64,000 bases of DNA. Source: Leuctra nigra. Taxonomy: Eukaryota; Arthropoda; Insecta; Plecoptera; Leuctridae. The notes below the pieces were generated by a model. That model made no database searches. It saw only the letters and a program-made list of their open reading frames with translations, and was not told where the DNA came from. Position 1 is the stretch's first letter; the number at the start of each line of letters is the position of its first letter. Location: positions 33,955,629-34,019,628 of the forward strand of contig OW203764.1 of NCBI GenBank assembly GCA_934045905.1. Direction: 5' to 3'. Below, piece after piece: positions 666 through 59,500 of the stretch. A program made the position numbers and the translations under genes.

Positions 666-1650
666 ATGGATGGTGAAGACGATGAGGAGGAGGACAACGG
701 GGAAGAAGTCGGAATGACCGGCCGGCTGCGGCATCCCAGGAGGCCCTAGAGGACGGTGAAGACGATGAGGAGGACAACGGGGAAGAAGTCGGAATGGCCG
801 GCCGGCTGCGGCATCCCAGGAGGCCCTAGAGGACGGTGAAGACGATGAGGAGGAGGACAACGGGGAAGAAGTCGGAATGACCGGCCGGCTGCGGCATCCC
901 AGGAGGCCCTAGAGGACGGTGAAGACGATGAGGAGGACAACGGGGAAGAAGTCGGAATGACCGGCCGGCTGCGGCATCCCAGGAGGCCCTAGAGGACGGT
1001 GAAGACGATGAGGAGGACAACGGGGAAGAAGTCGGAATGACCGGCCGGCTGCGGCATCCCAGGAGGCCCTAGAGGACGGTGAAGACGATGAGGAGGACAA
1101 CGGGGAAGAAGTCGGAATGACCGGCCGGCTGCGGCATCCCAGGAGGCCCTAGAGGACGGTGAAGACGATGAGGAGGAGGACAACGGGGAAGAAGTCGGAA
1201 TGACCGGCCGGCTGCGGCATCCCAGGAGGCCCTAGAGGACGGTGAAGACGATGAGGAGGACAACGGGGAAGAAGTCGGAATGACCGGCCGGCTGCGGCAT
1301 CCCAGGAGGCCCTAGAGGACGGTGAAGACGATGAGGAGGACAACGGGGAAGAAGTCGGAATGACCGGCCGGCTGCGGCATCCCAGGAGGCCCTAGAGGAC
1401 GGTGAAGACGATGAGGAGGACAACGGGGAAGAAGTCGGAATGACCGGCCGGCTGCGGCATCCCAGGAGGCCCTAGAGGACGGTGAAGACGATGAGGAGGA
1501 GGACAACGGGGAAGAAGTCGGAATGGCCGGCCGGCTGCGGCATCCCAGGAGGCCCTAGAGGACGGTGAAGACGATGAGGAGGAGGACAACGGGGAAGAAG
1601 TCGGAATGGCCGGCCGGCTGCGGCATCCCAGGAGGCCCTAGAGGACGGTG
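666..1650. repeat. 80/83-bp GC-rich minisatellite, about 12 units
   Basis: Twelve head-to-tail units of 80 bp, or 83 bp where one extra GAG triplet is present, are nearly identical over the whole array. Each unit contains GACAACGGGGAAGAAGTCGG and GGCATCCCAGGAGGCCC. On the plus strand each unit reads as a short acidic stretch (DGEDDEEDNGEE) followed by an arginine/proline-rich end and TAG. The first unit is preceded by an ATG at 666, giving a 27-codon mini-ORF to 749. The overlapping serine-rich minus-strand ORFs are a by-product of the repeat. The array may be an amplified fragment of an acidic coding exon, but no gene context supports that. Confidence 0.9.
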
Positions 1651-42548: not shown

Positions 42549-42611
42549 TCAATACTGCAATAATTGGTATTGTCTTAGTAGAATTGTTCGCATGAAGATG
42601 TCGAAGAGCAC
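42549..42611 (-). CDS. Gene A exon 5 (C-terminus)
   Basis: Follows a 79-bp intron ending TTTCATTTCAG. Encodes VLFDIFMRTILLRQYQLLQY and TGA, the short C-terminal TM7 segment typical of the family. Confidence 0.85.
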   Translation of the reverse strand: MLFDIFMRTILLRQYQLLQY

Positions 42612-45600
42612 CTGAAATGAAAAGACGTACCTATAGTTTGACATCCTCATGACACAATATGACGGACTACTGCGCATGTCCAAGACTCACTTGCGTCATC
42701 AGCTCCATGGACAAGACTGTGACGTTGCCCGCCAGGAGCTGCATGGGAGTCTGCGCGCGCATCATGATCATCTGCACGTAGTGGCGTGACGTCTTGTCCG
42801 CGCGATACCATCTGCAGCTGTACGCAGCCTGGGCCAGGCGCTCGCTCTGCAACACACGAGTTGTACAACACATCTGCAGCTGTACGCAGCCTGGGCCAGG
42901 CGCTCGCGCTGCAACACACAGTTGTACAACACATCTGCAGCTGTACGCAGCCTGGGCCAGGCGCTCGCTCTGCAACACACGAGTTGTACAACACATCTGC
43001 AGCTGTACGCAGCCTGGGCCAGGCGCTCGCTCTGCAACACACGAGTTGTACAACACATCTGCAGCTGTACGCAGCCTGGGCCAGGCTCTCGCTCTGCAAC
43101 ACACGAGTTGTACAACACATCTGCAGCTGTACGCAGCCTGGGCCAGGCGCTCGCTCTGCAACACACGAGTTGTACAACACATCTGCAGCTGTACGCAGCC
43201 TGGGCCAGGCGCTCGCGCTGCAACACACGAGTTGTACAACACATCTGCAGCTGTACGCAGCCTGGGCCAGGCACTCGCGCTGCAACACACGAGTTGTACA
43301 ACACATCTGCAGCTGTACGCAGCCTGGGCCAGGCGCTCGCTCTGCAACACACGAGTTGTACAACACATCTGCAGCTGTACGCAGCCTGGGCCAGGCGCTC
43401 GCGCTGCAACACACGAGTTGTACAACACATCTGCAGCTGTACGCAGCCTGGGCCAGGCACTCGCGCTGCAACACACGAGTTGTACAACACATCTGCAGCT
43501 GTACGCAGCCTGGGCCAGGCGCTCGCTCTGCAACACACGAGTTGTACAACACATCTGCAGCTGTTCGCAGCCTGGGCCAGGCGCTCGCTCTGCAACACTC
43601 GAGTTGAACAACACATCTGCAGCTGTACGCAGCCTGGGCCAGGCGCTCGCGCTGCAACACACGAGTTGTACAACACATCTGCAGCTGTACGCAGCCTGGG
43701 CCAGGCACTCGCGCTGCAACACACGAGTTGTACAACACATCTATAGCCAAAACATTGTGAATCAAACCCCAACGGCTGGCGCTCAATGTTAAGCAACATT
43801 GAGCGCGGTCAGCGGTTGGATGGGTGACCAATCTACTCTGAACCCTTACCTAATATCGCCAAATTTCAGTAGCACCGTGTTACTGTAGCACGATCGGCTA
43901 GTTGCCATGGCGACAATGTTAATTCTTATGGCTAAAACTTTTAAAACAAAAGTTGTGCTACAGAACACGGTGCTACTGAAATATGGCGATATTATGTAAG
44001 GGTCATGACTTGCCAGTTGCTGCCATTGGGCCAGAGGGACTGGGGTGTTTGGGGGTTAGTGTGACGACGACGTCCCTCCACCTGTTATCAATCTCTCGAC
44101 GGGGCGGGTTGTGAATGTTACACTGTCCTTCGGATAGGACGTTAAGCCGTTGGCCCCCTTGGTACCTCTCGTCAGGAGTAGGCTACATGCTGGTACCGGG
44201 TTTCCTCTCCTCCCTTCTCTATTACATTCTCACTTGTGGAACCTCGGCTTGATATCTTTGATAGGCTCAAATCCAAATCAAATCAGTCAAAAACAAACGA
44301 AACCAAAACAGCGCCATTGAATATATAGCCATTTTGGCTAACATTTTAGGGACTGTTTTAGGGAAAAAGTGAACAAATACACAACAAAAAGAACAAGAAC
44401 AAGCAGCACTGGAGCTGCTTCTGATATGCTTTTGATTTTCGACTGTTTTTAAAGCCTATTTTGGATAAATGCTTTTTAAGTGTGTGGCTTAAAATCTAAT
44501 CCCCATAAAAAACACTCCGTGTAAAAATACCAGCCAAGTCTCTTTACTTTAAAAAAATTCAACACCGAAAAGGAGTGATATCAAAAAAGGAGCCAAGTCA
44601 ATGACATTTCCAAATATTTAATCGTATCTTTGAAATAAAAGTATAAACACCGAGAAATACTTTACAAAAGGACTTGGCGCATCGTTTTTTTAAAGACATT
44701 TTTCTATTCATAAGCGTAATATGCCATTTATATACAACCGTCATTAAGAACTTTTATCATAATAGGGACACATCTTTCAATTACATATTATATATACCTA
44801 CTGTAAATAATTTTCTATTTGAATATGTACACATGAAACTTGTTGCCTATGTTTGTAATAAATACACAATAGATATCTTCGTAATATTGTTTCGTGGTCA
44901 ACATATTAATTAAGTCTCATGCGTTATACCTTCTCATCATGAAATAAATTTCTATTAATCCGCAATTTATAATAGTACATTTCACGAAGTACACAGTGAC
45001 GGCACATTGAATTTCTTTAACATTTTTAAATTTATTCACTTTACACTTGAAAAATATATAATAGTGTTCTATCGATAGTTAGTAATTTATTTGACAACGT
45101 TTCATGATTTCCCTCAGAGTCAAGATCATATTATGAAAAGATACCCTTCTAATATCACCATATTAACAGTGTTATAAGAATATATATGAGCGCACTTCCT
45201 TGTTACTTAATTCTTTTACCATATCACTTATGTATTACAACATGAAATCTTTCTTCTATCGCCATTGACAAAACTATAAAATAGCAATTACTAAAAGTAG
45301 CTTGATTCATAGCTTGAGTAGCTTGATGGCTCTAATAGAAAGAGGAAAAGTACTTAAACTTTTACATTTCTTTCCACTTTTAGGATAGAAAGATGTCTTT
45401 AAAAAAACGATGCGCCAAGTCCTTTTGTAAAGTATTTCTCGGTGTTTATACTTTTATTTCAAAGATACGATTAAATATTTGGAAATGTCATTGACTTGGC
45501 TCCTTTTTTGATATCACTCCTTTTCGGTGTTGAATTTTTTTAAAGTAAAGAGACTTGGCTGGTATTTTTACACGGAGTGTTTTTTATGGGGATATCACTC

Positions 45601-48600
45601 CTTTTTTCAGTTTATTCTTACTCACCAATGACTATAATTCCTTTAAAAAAATACGCCTTTGTGGTTTGGTTGCTAAGAAGAATTGTGTTTGGTGCTAAAT
45701 GTAAGCTTAAAATTATATTCCATGATGAATTGCGAAAGCATCGTTCCAATCGGTCCAACTGTTCTCGAGTTATCGCATCACTTCCAGTTTTCAAAATGGC
45801 GGCTGACATCACTGCCACCTAATATCTGTATCTTAAATGTTATGTAACATTATAAGCCTTCTGAATATGTATTTATTGTTATAAGAGATGGTTTTAGTCA
45901 GATTTGGCATTGTTATGGCGTCATTTCCGGTTTTAGTAATAGTGCATTTCTATTTCGACTATTGATGTTTCATAAAGATGACCGTCTGAATCGATTGGCG
46001 CAAATTTCGTTTCGATCGGTTCAGCCGTTTTCGAGATATGACGTCACTTCCGGTTTCAAAATGGCGGCATAAAACCGGTTATAGCAAAAGGCACCTTAGA
46101 CGCCAAAAGTGCACACGTGGTAAAAATTTCAGATCGATCGGTTAACCCGTTTAGGCTGTGGCCCTGTCAACAGTGTTTCCTGATATCTGAATCATCATCA
46201 TCATCATCATCAGATAGCTTTTAAAAGGGGTGTAATTTCACTGTTTTCACGGCCATCTTGCTCGCAAATGACATAACCTGTTGTTCCCAAATTTGGTATA
46301 GGGGGTGGGGTGGGCCATAGCTCGAAATTAAGATATTTCGCAACAATGTGAGATTTTCCAATGTTGAGATCCAGTAGGCCGAAAATGCCATGTTGTTGCT
46401 TACAGTAAAAGTGTTTGGTCTGCTCCTCAGTTTATTAGGCATTTACAGTATGTTGAGTGAGTTTGAGTGTACCGTACGACTTGGCTGGGTGGAGCGACCG
46501 CTCCACTAGATGACAAATTAAGTTAAATGAGTGATTTACCTCGGTAATTAGTATCTGTCCAAAGTTGCAGAAAATGTATAGTCTCTGTGAGGCAAATAGA
46601 AGTGTCCAGACGTATTTACTCAGCTCTGGGTCATCCCAACTGCCCATCTGCACGCAAACATAGCGTTAACATTTAATAAGAGATCAAGTTGCAGTGGATT
46701 CTCATTTCGATGCCATCGCTTCTGACAGCTTATTCAAATAAGTATATATACAATAACTACTGATAATTTTATATAATAGGAGTAAATTATAGTCAACAAT
46801 GCAAAATTTGAACTTAATGTGACTACCTACTTTAATTTTTCAGCCAATCAGGAAAAAATTATTGAATTTAGTTTTGATTTAGCCAAACAACGAAATTCAT
46901 TAAATTTCTAGCAGTAAAACTGTACGACAGCTGCAAACACTGTGAAAATTTAGGACTTTATAGATCAAACTGTGTGAGCTAGCTGCCACTTTCATTTTTT
47001 AAGAAATCGTAGGCAGCACCCAAAAACTTTAAACCATAGAATGATTTAGTAAAATTTTGTGAAAAATTTCAGCTCGATCGGAAAAATATTGTGACCTGTG
47101 GAGTGGGGTCAAATAACAAACAAAAAAAGAACAGAGAAAATGTTCAGTGACGAATGGAGACGATCGCTACTCTCGCTCAATAACCAATTTATTCAGTCAG
47201 AATTGTCAAAATGCAGATTTTTTTGTCAGATGCTAAATTTTCCTTTCAGTTCTAATTTTAGTTAAATCCACTTACCACTGCCAATTTCAGTGCAAAGATG
47301 CTCATAATGAGTGCTGTCAGCCTTAATAGTGTGAATGCATATGATTTCCAATACACATTTAGATCTTCGACAAATCTGAATTAATAACATTATAATCAAT
47401 GATAATCAATGATAATTTACATCTCAAATATAACAAGCTCTGTTTTAAATAATATTACCTTAACAGCAGATTATGTTTTATGCAACACTCCTTTAAAATC
47501 ATTGCCACATTTTGATTCCTGTCTCTTGAATTCTGTTTCGAGGTTCGTTCTTCACAGACTTCTTCTGGGTTGGGTTTCGATGTCACAACATTGATGTCTG
47601 CTGATGAATCCGATACTTGATTCCACTTGAGTTTGCGTGAAGTTGGTTTTATAGGATAAATGTCCGTCTTTCTGGCCGCAATCCGAGGATATTCTTCAAT
47701 GTCCGTCTTTCTGACCGCAACCTGAGGATATTCTTCAATGTCCGTCTTTCTGACCGCAATCTGAGAATATTCTTCAATGTCTGTCTTTTTGACCGCAACC
47801 TGAGGATATTCTTCAATGTCCGTCTTTCTGACCGCAATCTGAGGATATTCTTCAATGTCCAGATCTTCAATGTCCAGAGACACCATTTGAGTTCCATCAT
47901 TATGGACTTCTGCTTTGATTATCTTAACATTATCGCTTATACCTGGTTTACTTAGAGTAAATATTTCATGACTCCCAGCAGATATATTTTCTTCTTGCTT
48001 CACATTTAGTAGTACATTCTTTACCAGCACAATGTTAACTGTATCTTGCGTTTTCTTACAATTTTTGTTACTACCGATTTCCGCAAGAGTATTGCTAAGT
48101 TGCTTTATCAAGACAGATAACTCAGATACTATTGTAAACATAATTGCACCCATACAAATTCCAAGAAAAAGTTCAATAATAGCAGCAAATATGTCAAAAA
48201 TCAAAGAAATCTTTGACGTGATAAATTTGCTAATTGTAACTGATTTTATTATTGCATTGTTCAGTGTAAGCTGTTGTAAATTAGCGTCTGCAAAAAAGCT
48301 TAATACAAAAATAAAAATGAGGTTAGCACCAGCAAATATAACTAGCAGTACGAATACAAAAAACCTTAACAAATGTATTTTCTTTTCTTTAAAGTGTGGT
48401 TGAATTATATTGCTGCTAATTCCAAATTGATGCGTAATAGAAAACAACTTTTCTAATAGGTCATGAAGAACTACTCGTTTTAATAAAATAATCCAAATCA
48501 GCAATGGTTTATCAATAAAGCAAAGGAACAAAACTAGATTACTGGTGACCTTGGGGAAATCTGTCCATGTCATTGCTGCGCTGAGTAAGCGAGAAGCTGG

Positions 48601-48783
48601 TAGGAAGCAGGCGATGAGAGTTATGCAGATGGTGTAGCAGAAATACAAACGTGACTTCCAGTCGTACAGAAGTCTGCCGTCCGGTTTGTCAATCCCATGG
48701 TAAGACAAACCAGCGATGAACAGGAACCGATTTACACGACGGAATTTCAGATTCGTTTCAGTTTTGGTGTCCATTACTGACAT
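42549..48783 (-). CDS. Odorant receptor gene A (7tm_6), five exons
   Basis: Insect odorant receptor, a seven-transmembrane ligand-gated channel subunit with cytoplasmic N-terminus that works with the co-receptor Orco in sensory neurons (family knowledge). Five exons splice in frame: 48783-47459, 47375-47276, 46647-46540, 42846-42691 and 42611-42549, all with GT-AG introns. The product is about 580 aa, long for the family (about 400) because of an extended loop before TM5 with five 13-residue repeats. Family landmarks are HNLLLRFVEDLN, FCNFGQ, AAYSCRWY and a C-terminal LLRQYQLL. The start is either the codon at 48783 or, preferred by comparison with gene B, the in-frame ATG at 48774 (MDTKTET). 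Exon 4 begins inside a 15-unit repeat of its own splice acceptor. Introns 2 and 3 hold transposon sequence. Confidence 0.88.
42691..42846 (-). CDS. Gene A exon 4 (loop to TM7)
   Basis: A 156-nt exon, phase 0, encoding SERLAQAAYSCRWY..., TSRHYVQMIMMRAQTPMQLL and AGNVTVLSMELMTQ, donor GTGAGT. Same length and landmarks as gene C exon 4. The acceptor lies in the first unit of the 62-bp array, and ITE|SERLAQAAYSC joins exon 3 to exon 4 as in other receptors. Confidence 0.88.
42809..43738 (-). repeat. 62-bp array repeating the exon 4 splice acceptor, 15 units
   Basis: Fifteen head-to-tail units of 62 bp (one is 61 bp). On the minus strand each unit contains CTCGTGTGTTGCAG, a usable 3' splice acceptor, then AGCGAGCGCCTGGCCCAGGC and GCGTACAGCTGCAG, the first 35 bases of exon 4. 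The unit nearest the coding sequence supplies the real exon start at 42846. The array has no stop codon in any minus-strand frame, so ORFs of 343-394 codons run through it. Exactly three units (186 bp) would keep the reading frame. Confidence 0.95.
43766..44292 (+). mobile_element. 5S rRNA-derived SINE (SINE3-like), interrupted
   Basis: The head GTTAAGCAACATTGAGCGCG ... GGTTGGATGGGTGACC closely resembles the 3' half of 5S rRNA including the box C promoter region. The body contains CCTTCGGATAGGACGTTAAG and GGAGTAGGCTACATG. A MITE at 43842-44003 splits head and body. It lies in gene A intron 3, next to the acceptor array. The class is inferred from the 5S similarity. Confidence 0.7.
43842..44003. 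mobile_element. MITE inserted in 5S SINE
   Basis: Termini ACCCTTAC(C/A)TAATATCGCC and the mirrored GGCGATATTATGTAAGGGT form about 50-nt inverted repeats that also share TTTCAGTAGCACCGTGTT. No ORF. Confidence 0.75.
46039..46068 (-). promoter_or_regulatory. YY1/Pho-ETS-CRE composite motif, copy 2
   Basis: TGACGTCA overlaps ACTTCCGGT and runs on into CAAAATGGCGGC. This is the same composite as 15229-15260, in reverse, inside gene A intron 3. Confidence 0.5.
46190..46213 (+). repeat. ATC trinucleotide microsatellite
   Basis: About seven ATC units within copy 2 of family 2. Confidence 0.9.
46540..46647 (-). CDS. Gene A exon 3 (TM6)
   Basis: A 108-nt exon, phase 0 at both ends, acceptor GCAG and donor GTAAAT. 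Encodes MGSWDDPELSKYVWTLLF... through FCNFGQILITE, the conserved TM6 region. Same length as gene C exon 3. Confidence 0.9.
46683..47180 (-). mobile_element. Family 1 fragment in gene A intron 2
   Basis: Matches the copy in gene B intron 2 (52714-53360) and has the same junction, CTCGCTCAA next to TAACCAATTT, so the insertion predates the A/B duplication. The CTAG end is missing here. Confidence 0.6.
47276..47375 (-). CDS. Gene A exon 2 (TM5)
   Basis: A 100-nt exon with acceptor TTCAG and donor GTAAGT. It completes the arginine and encodes FVEDLNVYWKSYAF followed by TM5 LTALIMSIFALKLAV. Confidence 0.9.
47459..48783 (-). CDS. Gene A exon 1 (N-terminus to TM4 and loop)
   Basis: Encodes the N-terminus, TM1 (LYFCYTICITLIACFLPAS), TM2, TM3, TM4 (ELFLGICMGAIMFTIV) and a long cytoplasmic loop. 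It ends ...HNLLL plus AG of a split arginine codon, with donor GTAATA at 47458. Confidence 0.88.
47665..47859 (-). repeat. 39-bp coding repeat, five units, gene A
   Basis: Five in-frame units encode DIEEYPQIAVRKT with small variations (PQV, VKKT, YSQ, PRIAA). Located in the cytoplasmic loop between TM4 and TM5. Confidence 0.95.
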
Positions 48784-49394
48784 ATCGTTTTTTCATTCTA
48801 ATATACCTGTAAAGAAGCCGAGACGATTTGGATCCAAGTGTTGTAACCTTTTAACGAATAGCTGTTGTAACATGTATTGGGACAACTAGTTAGAAGCTTG
48901 CGTGATTAAATTATTTTAACGAAACACCCAGTGGGAATTGTTCACCTGCAGGCAAGCAGAAGTTCTTCAGACAATTTTTCAGTGAGCGATGATCGTCTAA
49001 ATAATTCATCGACTCAATTGTGGGCGGTCGACTTTGTGAAAAAAATACAGCTCATAGATATTATGTTGATCGCCCACGCAGTTAATGAAGTATACGCATT
49101 TATAAATATGCAAAATTCTTCTCCACATATTCAAAAGCATAAATAACTTAAATCACGTGTCATTTGATTTTAAAAATCCTGGATAATATTTAGGATTTTT
49201 ATATGTCCATGTTCTACGATAACAATGTATTGAGAAACATTCATTGCTACCTGTGCATGACAAATAATATTTTCCCTTATCCTATATTTCATTAGAAAAT
49301 AATTTGAAATGTTTGATATTATGTTCGTACATCTCAAATTGTAATCAGGAATATATGAAAATAGAACACTTGAATTTATTTAAGTAAAAAATTA
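48784..49394. other. Gene A 5' flank, duplicated upstream of gene B
   Basis: CAGTGGGAATTGTTCACCTG and CAAGCAGAAGTTCTT recur upstream of gene B (about 55040-55080) in the same place. The duplication that made A and B therefore includes the putative promoter region. No TATA or initiator could be assigned with confidence. Confidence 0.6.
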
Positions 49395-50543
49395 CCCCAT
49401 AAAAAACACTTCGTGTAAAAATACCAGCCAAGTCTCTTCTACTAAAAAAAAAATATATGAAATCTAAAAATTCTGCACTGAAAAGTAATGATATCAAAAA
49501 ATTTGCCAAGTCAAAACTTTATTTGAAAATCAAAAAATACTTGGCGCATCGTGTATATTAATAGCTTAGAAGTATAGGCCAGATATAAAATATTAATATA
49601 CATAAAATATACAAACATATAGTATACCTAAAATGCCCTAAAAAATCGATGCGCCAAGTATTTTTTGATTTTCAAATAAAGTTTTGACTTGGCAAATTTT
49701 TTGATATCATTACTTTTCAGTGCAGAATTTTTAGATTTCATATATTTTTTTTTTAGTAGAAGAGACTTGGCTGGTATTTTTACACGAAGTGTCTTTTATG
49801 GGGATATCACTCCTTTTTTTAGTTTATTCTAACAACTTGTGACACATATGAAATGAACAATTACTAAATTCTTTTAAAAAATCATCACCCTTTACAATTT
49901 CGTTACCACTAATGAATAGCAGCGTATGGTCCTAAATAATTGCTTTAAATGATCTTTCACGAAGAATAGCAAAGGTTTCATTCCAATCAGTCAACCCAGT
50001 TCCGAGACATGGAAACACTTCGGTTTTCAAAATGGCTGCTGAACTTTCTGCAATGCCACATAGAATTTATTTCTATAAATGATGTGTATCATTTTAAGCT
50101 TTCTGAATATGTATTTATTGTATAGGAGGGAATTATAATAATTTATACATTTAAATGACGTCATTTCCGGTCTCATAAATAGGACAATTCTATTTGTACT
50201 GTTCATATTCCATAGAGATAGCCATCCGAATCGTTTGGCGCTAGTTTCATACCGATTTGTCTACCAGTTTTTGAGATATGACGTTACTTCCGGTTTAAAA
50301 ATGGCGGCTGAAATCTCTGACCCCTTGAAGTATATTTGAAACATGATTACAATTTTATAAGCTGTCTCAAATAGTATATTTATTGCATCAAAATAAAAAT
50401 TTGTGAGATTATTAAAATGTGTGACGTCATTTCCGGTTAAGGTATGGGAAACTGCAAATATTATTGATGATAATACATAAAGTTGACCGTCTAAATTGTT
50501 TTGCGCTGGTTTCGTTGAAATCTATTTAGCCGTTATTGAGATA

Positions 50544-50573
50544 TGATGTCACTTCCGGTTTCAAAATGGCGGC
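50544..50573 (-). promoter_or_regulatory. YY1/Pho-ETS-CRE composite motif, copy 3 (third module)
   Basis: TGATGTCACTTCCGG runs into CAAAATGGCGGC, with one mismatch to the CRE palindrome. Confidence 0.45.
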
Positions 50574-50815
50574 TTCCGGTTGGTTTTATAACAAGTCACA
50601 TGAGACGTCAAAAGTACATACGTTACATAAATATCAAAATAATCGGATCAACCTTTGTTGCCAAAAAGCCAATCGATGTATTTCAAATTTCATTACGTCA
50701 TTTCCGGTTTCTTTAACATAATGTTTAGTCTTTTGCTACTTATCATGCATATAGATGACCGTCTGGATCGTTTGGCGCAATTTTCGTTCCAATCGGTCCA
50801 GCCGTTGACGAGATA

Positions 50816-50845
50816 TGACGTCACTTCCGGTTTCAAAATGGCGGC
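50816..50845 (-). promoter_or_regulatory. YY1/Pho-ETS-CRE composite motif, copy 3 (fourth module)
   Basis: A perfect TGACGTCA overlaps ACTTCCGG and is followed by CAAAATGGCGGC. Confidence 0.5.
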
Positions 50846-51362
50846 ACAAAAAATTCATGGGGTGAAGGTTAAATCAGACGCCAAAAGTGCACACGTGGTA
50901 AAAATGTGGGATCAATCGATTCAGCCGTTTAGGCTGTGGCCTGTTTACCGGATTTAAATTCCAGGAGACTACTACTACTACTACTACTACTACTACTGAG
51001 ATTATTATTATTATGAAAACCGCCCTAAAACACTGTTTTCACGGCCCTCTAGCGCGCAAAGGGCGTAACCTATTGTTCCCAAATATGGTATATGTTGTAG
51101 GGTGGGCCTTAGCTCGAAATTAAGATATATCGCAACAATGTGAGATTTTCCAATTTTAAGATCCAGTAGGCCGAAAATGCCACTTTGATGCTTACAGTAA
51201 AAGTGGGTTTGCTCCAGCCTTTTTAAATGAGTGTGTGCGCGCGCCGTACGACTTGGCTGGCGTGGAGCGACCGCTCCACTAGATATTCAAAATAGGATAT
51301 GTTATATCAACATTTTGCAAAAGGGCAAGAGAGGGGTTTGACAAAATCAATTAACCTGTTTA

Positions 51363-51707: not shown

Positions 51708-51907
51708 NNNNNNNNNNNNNNNNNNNNNNNNNNNNNNNNNNNNNNNNNNNNNNNNNNNNNNNNNNNNNNNNNNNNNNNNNNNNNNNNNNNNNNNNNNNNN
51801 NNNNNNNNNNNNNNNNNNNNNNNNNNNNNNNNNNNNNNNNNNNNNNNNNNNNNNNNNNNNNNNNNNNNNNNNNNNNNNNNNNNNNNNNNNNNNNNNNNNN
51901 NNNNNNN
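51708..51907. other. Assembly gap (200 N)
   Basis: Two hundred N residues, a round number that suggests a gap of unknown real size. ORFs crossing it are artefacts. It lies downstream of gene B exon 2, where B exons 3-5 would be expected. Confidence 0.99.
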
Positions 51908-53400: not shown

Positions 53401-53500
53401 CACTGCCAATTTCAGAGAAGTGATACTTAAAATGAGTGTTGTCAGCCTTATTATTGTGAATGTCAATACATTCCAATAATTATTTAGATCTTCCACAAAT
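53401..53500 (-). CDS. Gene B exon 2 (TM5)
   Basis: A 100-nt exon encoding FVEDLNNYWNVLTF and TM5 LTTLILSITSLKLAV, acceptor TTTTCAG and donor GTAAGT. Confidence 0.87.
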
Positions 53501-54886
53501 CTGAAAATATAACATGATAATCAATGATAATTTACATCTCAAATATAACAATTTATGTTTTAAATAATATTACCTTAACAGCAGATTATGTTTTATGCAA
53601 CACTCCTTTAAAATCATTGCCACATTTTGATTCCTGTCTCTTGAGTTCTCTTCCGAGGTTCGTTCTTCACAGACTTCTTCTGGGTTGGGTTTCGATAGTA
53701 CAACATTGTTGTCTGCTGATGAAGCCGATACTTGATTCGACTTGAGTTTGCGTGAAGATGGTTTTATAGAATAAATGTCCGTCTTTCTGACCACAACATG
53801 AGGATATTCTTCAATGTCCGTCTTTCTGACCGCAATCTGAGGATATTCTTCAATGTCCGTCTTTCTGACCGCAATCTGAGGATATTCTTCAATGTCCGTC
53901 TTTCTGACCGCAATCTGAGGATATTCTTCGATGCCCGTCTTTCTGACCGCAACCTGAGGATATTCTTCAATGTCCAGATCTTCACTGTCCAGATACACCA
54001 TTTGAGTTCCATCTTCATGGACTTCTGCTTTAATTATTTTAACATCACCACTTATACCTGGTTTACTTATAGTAAATATTTCATGATTCTTGGAAGATAC
54101 GTTTTCTTCTCGCTTCTCTTTTAGTACTACATTATTTTCCAGCACAATGTTAACTGTATCTTGCGTTTTATTACAGTTTTTGTTACTTCCGATTTCCTCA
54201 AGAGTATTGCTGAGTTGTTTTATCAAGACAGATAACTCAGATACTATTGTAAACATAATTGCACCCAAACAAACCCCAAGAAAAAGTTCAATAACAGAAG
54301 CAATCATTTCAAAAATCAATGAAATCTTAGAAGTGACAAAATTTCTCAATATAACTGGTTTTAATAATGCATTGTTCAGTGTAAGATGTTGGATGCTAAG
54401 GTCAGAATAAAAACATAGTACAAAAATAAAAGAGAGGTTAGCACCAGTAAATATTACTAGCAGAATGATACCATAATATCTAATCAAGTTTATTTTTTTT
54501 TCCTTGAAATGTTGAGCTCTACTGCTCTTATTTTCATATTGATGCGAAATAGCAATCAACTTTTCTATTAGTTCATTAAGAATTGATCGTTTTATTAAAA
54601 TTACCCAAATCAGCATAGGTTTGTCAATAAAGCAAAGGAACAAAACTAGATTACTTGTGACCTTCGGGAAATCTGTCCATGTCATTGCTGCGCTGAGTAA
54701 GCGAGAAGCTGGTAGGAAGCAGGCGATGAGAGTTATGCAGATGCTGTAGCAGAAATAGAGACGTGACTTCCAGTCGTACAGAAGTCTGCTGTCCGGTTTG
54801 TCAATCCCATGGTAAGACAAACCAGCGATGAACAGGAGCCGATTTACACGACGGAATTTCATTTGCGTTTCAGTTTTGGTGTCCAT
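53401..54886 (-). CDS. Odorant receptor gene B (7tm_6), 5' two exons only
   Basis: Paralogue of gene A. Exon 1 (54886-53574) starts MDTKTET and exon 2 is 53500-53401; the intron is 73 bp with GT-AG ends. Together they give 471 codons covering TM1-TM5. The first 107 residues are nearly identical to A, the TM3-TM4 segment is clearly more diverged, and the loop is again conserved, including five 13-residue repeats. Exon 2 has a good donor (GTAAGT), but no TM6, AAYSC or C-terminal exon is seen before gene A. They may lie in the gap at 51708-51907, be lost, or B may splice to the 3' exons of A. No stop or frameshift is present in what is visible. Confidence 0.8.
53574..54886 (-). CDS. Gene B exon 1
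   Basis: Encodes N-terminus to the loop before TM5, ending HNLLL plus AG with donor GTAATA, the same junction as gene A. A 1-bp difference upstream puts the ATGTCAG codon out of frame, supporting MDTKTET as the start in both genes. Confidence 0.86.
53780..53974 (-). repeat. 39-bp coding repeat, five units, gene B
   Basis: Five in-frame units encode DIEEYPQIAVRKT or variants (GIEEYPQ, PHVVV). Same position and copy number as in gene A. Confidence 0.95.
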
Positions 54887-56569: not shown

Positions 56570-59500
56570 CTGAAATAGAAAATCAGTTGTTAACGTTTTA
56601 GAAAATTGAGAGAGAAAAATTGTTTCATAAATGAGTGTAACTTTTACAGGATGTTCACATGATCAGTCTGATTGTATATTAGTAGCACTTTTTCATTTTT
56701 GCTTATTGCATCGTTAATTAGGCGCCGGTTATTCAACAAAACAGCGCAAAACAATGAAATTTGCGATACGTTTGGAGACCAAACCCGTTAACCAATTGAT
56801 CTCAAATTTTAATCATGATTAGATGAAAGACAAACTTAGGGTTATCCCTTGGCACATTTTTGAAATTTAATTTTATACGGCGCCCAGGGAGACAAGAAAA
56901 TAGCTAATTTTTAAACAAAAATCCACTAATTATTACTAATTAACGAAACAAAAAAATTAAAAATGTACCAAGGGATAACCCTAAGTTTGTCCTTTATCTA
57001 ATCACGATTAAAATTTCAAATAATTTGGTCTACCCATTTCGTCTCCAATCGTATCGCAAAAAGTGTCTACAAAAAGCATCAAAATCGCTCGCGCTTGCAG
57101 CACCTTAAATGAAAGCAGTTGTTAAAATGTAAGATTAATAATCTTCTTCGTCTTACATTGAGCAATGTTTCCAATGAGAGCACATAGAAGTATCCTGCCA
57201 TCAGCTGCAGCGGTTGTTGAGTTCTCTGAATTAACATCTGCACGTAGCGATGTGACGATCTGCAGCTGTTGTACCACGTGGTGTTGTATGCTGCGTGGGA
57301 GAGACTCACGCTCTGAAACAGTCGTTCTAGATCATCTTCCTGCAATGGACATCGGGATTAAATAGTACGGCTCTGGGCAATGATGATTCACCACCCACAA
57401 CGCCCATTACTGGATCCCGATATTGGGATACATACAATTGTTTTTTTTATTTTATTTTCTGTTTGCAGCACATGCAAATTGCAAAATACACAGAATACCA
57501 AATCAAATTAAAGAAAATTACATAGCATATTTAACAGTATGAAAGAATTAAATAATTAAACATTTCTAGATATTATATCAAATAATTGAGAATGAAATAG
57601 GACATTAATATACAAAATTGGTAATAAAATTATAATAATACTGGTTAATATTGAGGCATCATAATAAATTCAATATGATACATATTCATATTCATATTCA
57701 TTCAATGGATTTTTTAATAAAGTATTTAGGTTCATTTACGAAAACCTTCGTCAATCTAACTTTATAAACTGTAATGTTTAGAGTTTGAGTTGAAGCATTG
57801 ACTATTCTAACATTAGTATATTTTGGTCACTTCCATAAGGACTGCAAATAAGCGGAACCTGGGTTTCGTAATTATCTCGGAGTATACAGAAGTAGTTGCG
57901 TTTTGTTGAGACGCTCCTAATTTATAATGTAGCATTTTGTAGGATCTCATTGAACCTAAATATACCTACAGTTGAGAATGTAGGTCTCTGTGGAAAACTT
58001 CCATGGAGTCAGGATGATATGAAGGGATGTGCGTTGTGAAAAATAGCCGACCGAATCGGGGCTCGAACCTGGGACCTCTCACTTGCCGGGCGAGAGCTCT
58101 ACCAATTGAGCTACCCGGTCGGTCGGACGGACATTAGACACAGCGCACTGATTAGGGTTAGAGATCTCCGAGGAAAATGGAATGAAGGTAGAGAATGCTC
58201 ACTACGAACTGTCATACCACCGGCGACGACACTGCCACCCTGTCCTGTCCGTCCGACCGGGTAGCTCAATTGGTATAGCTCTCGCCCGGTAAGTGAGCGG
58301 TCCCCGGGTTCGAGCCCCGATTCAGTCGGCTATTTTTCACAACGCACATCCCTTAATACTAAATATACTGTGTTCTTTCAAAGTATCGGCTCAACGGCTT
58401 GGCATTGTTCAGGTCGATTTTAAAATTACCTGATTTTGAAAATGCTCGCCGACGTAGCAGAAAAGTGAAAGTTTTAAGACAGCTGATGCGAGAGTGACAG
58501 AGTATTTAAATAAATCTGGATGACTCCAAGATCGAATCTACAAAAATGAAATTAGGTATTATCAAAGATATTATTGTAGATAATGAAATGTCGTATACCA
58601 ATAATGTATCTGTAACAATACAAACCAGCGCTAAATGAAATGCGCAGATACTTAAAATAACCTTTGTAGTGATCACAACAGCAAAGAACAGTGACTCCCA
58701 GATTCTTTGCAAATCGTTATAGTAACTGCAAAGAGAAAATGCAAATTATGTTATCAAAAATAAAGATAATATACCTACGTATAAATAATCTATAGTACAC
58801 ACCAATAACAAAGTGTTAGAATAGAATAGAATTTTTATTAACAGCTTAGTAATACACTGTACATTAATAATAATATATTAAGAAAAATACAAATGTAAAT
58901 TTTCCAGTGGCTGCTAGTCAGCTGTTGTAGTATCAAGTTTCAATGACATTTTCATAGTTACACAAATGCATTCCACAAACCTCACAAGCTCGTCATGCCA
59001 GATCATACAAGAAATAAGCATTGCTTCCATCGACTTGGTACTACTTGACGATGCCATTCTAGTTACCAATTCGATGTCAGAACTTCCATTTTCCAGATCA
59101 ATCAGTGCAGTGCCGTCTTGCTCAACTGGGTAACTCGGCTGCTCACAGACTGGCATTGTTGTGACGATTATATCAACAACTCGGCTCATTAATAGAGAAG
59201 TACTTCTTTGTTCTTTGTCCTTCTCACTACGTTTCAATGTGTCTTCATCTGCTCTCATGCTTCCAGCAGAAAGATTCTGATTCAGCGACTGGATCTTGGC
59301 GCTGAGTTTGAAGACAAGAGTGAAGAGAAGAAAGTACCCACCTCCTCCAACTGTTAGCTGACACAGTAGACCCAAGTGTTCGAACACAATCCTCAGCTCC
59401 ATGTACGGCGATTGATTCATGACATCCGGATACCAAGTTGAAAATATTGAAGTGTTTTCACCGCTCAAGATCGGTTTGATTAGCCAAGAGGCAATGGTGC

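What the first reader, a model, noticed from the sequence alone, without database searches (positions are those of the whole stretch)
42809..43738. Splice acceptor and 5' end of an odorant receptor exon amplified into a 15-unit array
Each 62-bp unit contains a plausible acceptor (GTGTGTTGCAG) followed by the first 35 bases of exon 4. The spliceosome therefore meets about 15 near-identical acceptors before the unique part of the exon. Only 0 or a multiple of 3 extra units keeps the frame (62 residues per 3 units), and no minus-strand frame in the array has a stop. This could act as a splicing buffer, generate length isoforms, or be neutral expansion. Gene C has a single acceptor at the homologous place.
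Basis: partly seen in the sequence, partly recalled or inferred. Interest (0 to 1): 0.9.

Follow-up and report, generated by a model that had tools for sequence, protein, structure and literature searches.

The report
Repeated splice sites in smell receptors
In an insect smell-receptor gene the DNA that marks where an exon begins has been copied fifteen times in a row, and the same kind of copying struck the same spot in many sister receptor genes, most likely harmless because the cell appears to use the last copy, yet a rare natural test of how cells choose splice sites.

Summary
The array is real: 15 copies of a 62-bp unit (97% matches, window 42809-43742, minus strand), each holding an acceptor plus about 35 nt of exon 4 of a five-exon odorant receptor (7tm_6, E 4.8e-26). 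The acceptor-15 product aligns without a gap to Orco across the join; the other in-frame forms add 41 to 289 aa.

It is not unique. In the same genome 34 of 100 sampled OR exon-4 acceptors sit in such an array, in six modal unit lengths (23, 29, 56, 62, 110, 119 bp), against 0 of 34 P450 exon starts. In 12 of 12 loci read in full the last acceptor leaves exon 4 open; only 16 of 160 upstream acceptors do so in frame. Best reading: a boundary-spanning 'mirage' minisatellite, as in amphioxus, tolerated because splicing uses the exon-proximal copy. No transcript was seen; acceptor use is inferred. The six modal lengths are all 2 modulo 3, noticed afterwards, with exceptions. By unit family (6 of 100 against 0 of 34) OR-specificity is not established.

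The parts
47459..48783 (-). gene A exon 1 (holds a 39-bp coding repeat, 13 aa x about 5)
47276..47375 (-). gene A exon 2
   Evidence: acceptor and GTAAGT donor, frame continues
46540..46647 (-). gene A exon 3, ends on a whole codon
42809..43742 (-). 62-bp x 15.1 array spanning the exon-4 acceptor
43740..43742 (-). AG (43741-43742) just above the array, CTATAG|ATG, exon start 43740; use would be in frame
   Evidence: read; YTNAY branch-like motifs start at 43812, 43792, 43765 and 43761 in the 161 nt scanned, none in the consensus unit
42920..42921 (-). site of the 1-bp deletion in unit 14 that resets the frame of units 1-13
42691..42846 (-). exon 4 as given by acceptor 15 (156 nt), the inferred main form
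42549..42611 (-). exon 5 with stop
57312..57312 (-). homologous acceptor of gene C (first base of its exon 4), without an array

Best explanation
The array is a minisatellite born from the intron 3/exon 4 boundary of an odorant receptor gene. A tandem duplication between two AGATG copies, one in the intron and one in the exon (inferred from the array edges), made a 62-bp unit that later expanded to 15. The spliceosome mainly joins exon 3 (46540) to the last, exon-proximal acceptor (42846), so the 14 decoys are removed with intron 3 and the 583-aa receptor is unchanged. Because the acceptor segments do not differ consistently in sequence, the choice would rest on context: exon definition across a 156-nt exon with a consensus donor after a 3.7-kb intron. 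Shown: array, gene structure, frame consequences, recurrence in the family. Inferred: acceptor choice and near-neutrality.
For: The 583-aa product of acceptor 15 matches 7tm_6 at 4.8e-26 and aligns without a gap across the exon 3/4 join to Apis Orco (8z9a) and the two other sequences printed (8v00, 6c70): LITE|SERLAQAAYSCRWY against LIEESSSVMEAAYGCHWY in 8z9a. In 12 of 12 array loci read in full, exon 4 after the last acceptor is open; of 160 upstream acceptors 53 are in frame and 16 are in frame and open. Between last unit and upstream consensus the acceptor segment shows no fixed difference in 10 of 10 arrays, the exonic segment shows some in 9 of 10 (the five 23-bp and two 29-bp loci are close kin). 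In L020 (same gene as L004) the upstream copy of the 110-bp duplication has decayed while the downstream one is intact. A relative without an array exists: L021 (same gene as L002), identical over 48 bases across the last acceptor, 10 intronic and 38 exonic. Array edges share AGATG (read). Amphioxus boundary minisatellites were reported not to disturb splicing (passages of PMC3087553; PMC3902484).
Against: No transcript was seen. The branch-like YTNAY motifs found in the 161 nt scanned lie above the array and none lies in the consensus unit, and recalled work on duplicated 3' sites (Reed and Maniatis 1986, not read here) found preference for the intron-proximal copy; both point to acceptor 0 or 1, which in this gene happen to be in frame and open. 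In this gene 5 of 14 upstream acceptors are in frame and open, more than in any of the other 11 loci. The six modal unit lengths all being 2 modulo 3 is not predicted by plain neutrality. dN/dS between genes A and B is 0.76 (bootstrap 0.53-1.15, exons 1-2 without the coding repeat), so function of the gene is not proven by selection.
Confidence: 0.68

Rival explanations
1. The first acceptor reached (unit 1, or the AG just above the array) is used, so the array is translated as 62-aa repeats inserted into the receptor (+289 or +298 aa).
For: Unit 1 is in frame and the array open, the AG above it too (read); branch-like motifs were found only above the array; intron-proximal preference is known from recalled experiments.
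Against: Stop-free reading of the unit on this strand arises in 6.4% of shuffles and frame is a one-in-three matter. In the other nine arrays of more than two copies the most upstream acceptor runs into a stop. Any insert would split the alignment block shared with Orco.
Confidence: 0.13
2. The arrays are a device for unproductive splicing: upstream acceptors shift the frame and send the RNA to decay, so copy number tunes receptor output.
For: All six modal unit lengths are 2 modulo 3, and the nearest upstream acceptor lies 2 modulo 3 away in 30 of 34 loci (paralogs not independent); 144 of 160 upstream acceptors do not give an in-frame open exon; arrays occur in many paralogs, and in the 119-bp group the neighbouring copy resembles its own gene's exon more than other genes' (96.4% against 89.1%; own strictly best in 6 of 11, two ties).
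Against: A shift of either kind meets a stop in exon 4 in most of the 40 loci, with or without an array (33 of 40 for +1, 37 of 40 for +2), so stops need no design. The copy next to the last meets no stop in exon 4 in L047 and L055, and is in frame and open in L056; in L112 it lies 120 nt away, in frame by length. No consistent excess of conservation of the acceptor segment over the exonic one among upstream units.
Confidence: 0.09
3. Array-bearing copies are dying genes in which the boundary expanded after loss of function.
For: dN/dS of genes A and B is near 0.8 with an interval reaching above 1; gene B shows no exons 3-5 between its exon 2 and gene A, where a 200-N gap lies.
Against: Gene A has five open exons with consensus sites; exon 4 is open after the last acceptor in 12 of 12 loci.
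Confidence: 0.1

Closest known systems
Amphioxus 'mirage' minisatellites at exon-intron boundaries (Adh3, globins BflGb6/BflGb9, PGBD5, TnC; passages of PMC3087553 and of PMC3902484; the 2002 Adh paper is not held)
   Same: Tandem units (10-160 bp in the passages) holding intron end plus exon start, or exon end plus donor; variable copy number; authentic copy beside the array
   Different: Here in an insect chemoreceptor family, at one homologous acceptor in 34 of 100 sampled loci, up to about 34 copies by TRF, six modal unit lengths all 2 modulo 3; splicing untested here
[quoted passage not shown] potato RdRp, passages of PMC4974935)
   Same: Tandem duplication copies an intron-exon boundary with its acceptor
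   Different: No GT of donor quality in the 62-bp unit by eye (seven listed), so no new intron is expected from these copies
Human internal tandem repeats in segmental duplications (passages of PMC2812944)
   Same: Boundary repeats can change intron and exon structure in young paralogs
   Different: Shorter arrays, on average 4 units of 30 bp; recurrence at one homologous boundary is not described in the passages seen

Membership tests
Insect odorant receptor (7tm_6) | Pfam 7tm_6 over its cut-off | tested here: met
   92 bits against 25.8 for the spliced 583-aa product; gene A exon 1 alone gives none
Insect odorant receptor (7tm_6) | Sequence match to solved odorant receptors over the C-terminal block | tested here: met
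   Orco E 4.1e-10, OR10 1.6e-7, OR28 5.8e-7
Mirage minisatellite | Tandem units spanning an exon-intron boundary | tested here: met
Mirage minisatellite | Authentic boundary at the edge of the array, copies on the intron side | tested here: met
   exon open after the last acceptor in 12 of 12 loci
Mirage minisatellite | Copy number varies | tested here: met
   between paralogs only: 56-bp group 2.0 to 18.1 copies, 119-bp group 1.8 to 7.1, several cut by the window fetched; not tested between individuals
Mirage minisatellite | Regular splicing of the mRNA | not testable with these tools
   no RNA data
Intron gain by tandem duplication | New donor and acceptor made by the duplication | tested here: not met
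   seven GT in the unit, none near the recalled consensus MAG|GTRAGT, judged by eye

The most novel reading that the evidence does not exclude
The exon-4 acceptor of this receptor family is a standing hotspot for acceptor amplification, and arrays are kept mainly when the unit length is 2 modulo 3, so that slips to the neighbouring acceptor shift the frame and are destroyed rather than making altered channel subunits: a frame-gated, copy-number-tunable splicing safeguard shared by dozens of receptors.
Probability: 0.06. Interest if true: 0.88.

Novelty: new variant of a known kind. Interest (0 to 1): 0.62.

Why it matters
These loci are natural competition tests: runs of 12 to 30 near-identical 3' splice sites, with several unit lengths, in receptor genes whose exon 4 stays open. 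Reading their transcripts would say directly whether proximity to the branch site, transcription order or exon definition wins. They also suggest how a coding family can carry fast-changing repeats at exon edges without visible damage, and such repeats could mislead gene annotation in chemoreceptor families.

Tried and rejected
Special RNA fold of the unit: energies no better than shuffles (z -0.58 to +1.16 for six sequences, one of them from gene C), rejected. Three-unit higher-order pattern: lag-3 similarity permutation p 0.04, weak. Selection on upstream acceptors: a first comparison with the last unit seemed to show a conserved acceptor segment, but comparing upstream units with each other removed it in most arrays (L047 alone still shows it strongly, its sister L055 does not), so it was dropped. 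GC-rich exon starts as cause: array loci 0.52, others 0.55, rejected. Protein database: none of the 7998 scored candidates reached E 0.001. PF02949 genome search was asked once, not answered and not repeated. Gustatory receptors as a second control: family searched, most rows cover nearly the whole profile in one exon; donor windows could not be fetched. The first script call translated exon 3 one base out of frame; one search replaced it.

Rows left out before counts: of 42 loci L018-L059, L027 is the upstream copy of L019 and L048 was not re-found by the script, leaving 40. L020 and L117 hold decayed or partial copies and L059 a weak TRF call (score 62); none of these is counted. L095 is counted on its self-match alone. 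The 100 loci are not a random sample: 40 are hits of the gene A exon (42 hits; 150 of 650 candidates scored); 60 are from the 150 scored of 2107 candidates of the L053 exon: 40 are ranks 1-45 without five already held, 20 were picked by hand from lower rows without seeing their sequence. The 34 P450 windows were picked by hand from 98 rows, and the hit start is not always the exact exon start. Paralogs are not independent: the locus-level Fisher test (34 of 100 against 0 of 34, p 1.5e-5) overstates; by unit family 6 of 100 against 0 of 34 gives p 0.34.

Full report
Observation. The window holds, on the minus strand, 15 copies of a 62-bp unit at 42809-43742 with 97% matches. Each copy carries 27 nt of intron end (ATGTGTTGTACAACTCGTGTGTTGCAG in 13 of 15 copies) and 35 nt of exon start. 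The consensus unit is free of stops in all six frames; in the array itself one plus-strand frame is cut in unit 3. The window lies in a 536-Mb assembly held here as G000, at C3:33955629-34019628; the full array is found only there.

The gene. Exons at 48783-47459, 47375-47276, 46647-46540, 42846-42691 and 42611-42549 join in frame to a 583-aa protein that is an odorant receptor by Pfam (92 bits) and by match to solved receptors. The three alignments printed there run without a gap through the exon 3/exon 4 join made with acceptor 15. The other in-frame forms were not aligned; by arithmetic they carry inserts of 41 to 289 aa. From recall, this segment lies at the cytoplasmic end of helix S6.

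Frame. Because unit 14 lacks one base, acceptors 1, 4, 7, 10, 13 and 15 are in frame (extra 867, 681, 495, 309, 123 and 0 nt). Acceptors 3, 6, 9, 12 and 14 meet a stop 77 nt before the exon 4 end; 2, 5, 8 and 11 meet none through exon 5 as modelled. A further AG 27 nt above unit 1 is also in frame (read). Branch-like YTNAY motifs start at 43812, 43792, 43765 and 43761, above the array, and none lies in the consensus unit.

Recurrence. A DNA search of the genome with the array returned, besides itself, seven short matches. One, L003, proved to be a sister gene in which acceptor plus exon start are duplicated with a 110-bp unit; its neighbour L004 carries the same duplication with the upstream copy decayed. 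A protein search with exon 4 gave 42 hits. In 40 usable loci the acceptor lies in an array in 12: 62 bp x 15; 110 bp x 1.9; 23 bp x 13-25 in five genes of a chromosome 7 cluster; 29 bp x 25 and x 34; 56 bp x 18; 119 bp x 1.8 and x 7.1. From array coverage of the same loci 2.1 would be expected counting other arrays only, 4.25 counting all. The exon-4 donor lies in an array in 2 of 40 (L032, L041; Fisher against the acceptor p 0.006, with kin among the loci). Arrays elsewhere in the same loci look, by reading their units, like other receptor boundaries: exon-3 end plus donor in L031 and L035, the whole last exon in L032. This was not tested by alignment.

Sixty more acceptors were fetched from the hits of a second exon. 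Of the first 40, 15 carry a second copy or array (eleven 56-bp, four of about 119 bp, one of those with 131-bp steps); of the next 20, 7 do, all about 119 bp. The total is 34 of 100, in six unit families. The sample leans towards these subfamilies and is not a genome-wide rate. As a control, 34 cytochrome P450 exon starts show no array across the start: 0 of 20 and 0 of 14; one, L122, has two small arrays in the intron. By locus this differs (p 1.5e-5), but by unit family it does not (6 of 100 against 0 of 34, p 0.34), so I do not claim that the receptors are special. In the window, 3.6% of bases lie in arrays by the same TRF settings.

Which acceptor. In the 12 fully read loci exon 4 is open after the last acceptor in all; of 160 upstream acceptors 53 are in frame and only 16 are in frame and open. 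If the genes work, the exon-proximal acceptor must dominate in most. Upstream units vary about as much in the acceptor segment as in the exonic one in most arrays, with L047 a strong exception, so neither retention nor removal of decoys is clear. The acceptor segment of the last unit does not depart from the upstream consensus in 10 of 10 arrays, while its exonic part does in 9 of 10, so acceptor strength is unlikely to decide; context is the likely judge. This is inference.

Unit length. The modal lengths 62, 110, 23, 29, 56 and 119 are all 2 modulo 3. If the six are independent, the chance of one common class is 3 x (1/3)^6, about 0.004, but this was noticed after the fact. The nearest upstream acceptor lies 2 modulo 3 away in 30 of 34 loci; the exceptions are L056 (114), L112 (120), L102 (121) and L105 (238, the copy between having no AG that passes the script). 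Over all steps between recognised acceptors 193 of 225 are in class 2, 20 in class 1 and 12 in class 0; some of these steps span units whose acceptor was not recognised. The donor-side or whole-exon arrays (105, 142, 114, 83 and 147 bp) do not share the class.

Turnover. In the 119-bp group the copy above the last one resembles its own gene's exon more than other genes' exons (96.4% against 89.1%, own strictly best in 6 of 11, two ties); in the 56-bp group the test is uninformative (0 of 11 strictly best, 7 ties, one row misaligned by an indel). So at least some arrays were probably re-copied after gene duplication.

Known kinds. Amphioxus globin, Adh3, PGBD5 and troponin C genes carry 'mirage' repeats across exon-intron boundaries that were reported or inferred not to disturb splicing (PMC3087553, abstract and passages; PMC3902484, one passage). 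Nine full-text searches listed no such report for insect odorant receptors, but only named odorant receptors; that is a limited check of one open library, seen mostly as listings.

Noticed in passing
window 53401-54886 (minus): Gene B: open exons 1 and 2 of a second receptor (exon 1 79% aa identity to gene A) with no exons 3-5 found before gene A; a 200-N gap lies at 51708-51907. Its exon 2 ends in the phase of gene A exon 3, so lost exons, exons in the gap, or shared exons 3-5 are all possible.
   Followed up: partly
window 47659-47860 and 53774-53975: 39-bp coding repeats of about 5 copies (13 aa) in exon 1 of genes A and B, in frame, unlike the acceptor array.
   Followed up: no
window 668-1650: 80-bp x 12 array with an acceptor-like CTCTAG|GG after a pyrimidine tract on the minus strand, by eye; gene unknown.
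   Followed up: no
window about 44500-46510 and 49390-51290: Related repeat elements with inverted ends in intron 3 of gene A and below gene B, by eye.
   Followed up: no
L032, +667 to +1626 from its exon-4 acceptor: A 147-bp unit that reads as a whole last exon with its acceptor, about 6.5 copies.
   Followed up: partly
L050, +893 to +1528 from its exon-4 acceptor: 70-bp x 9 array below the stop codon with repeated GTAAGT-like donors, by eye.
   Followed up: no
genome G000: The receptor family is very large: 150 scored hits out of 2107 candidates for one exon, on many chromosomes.
   Followed up: no
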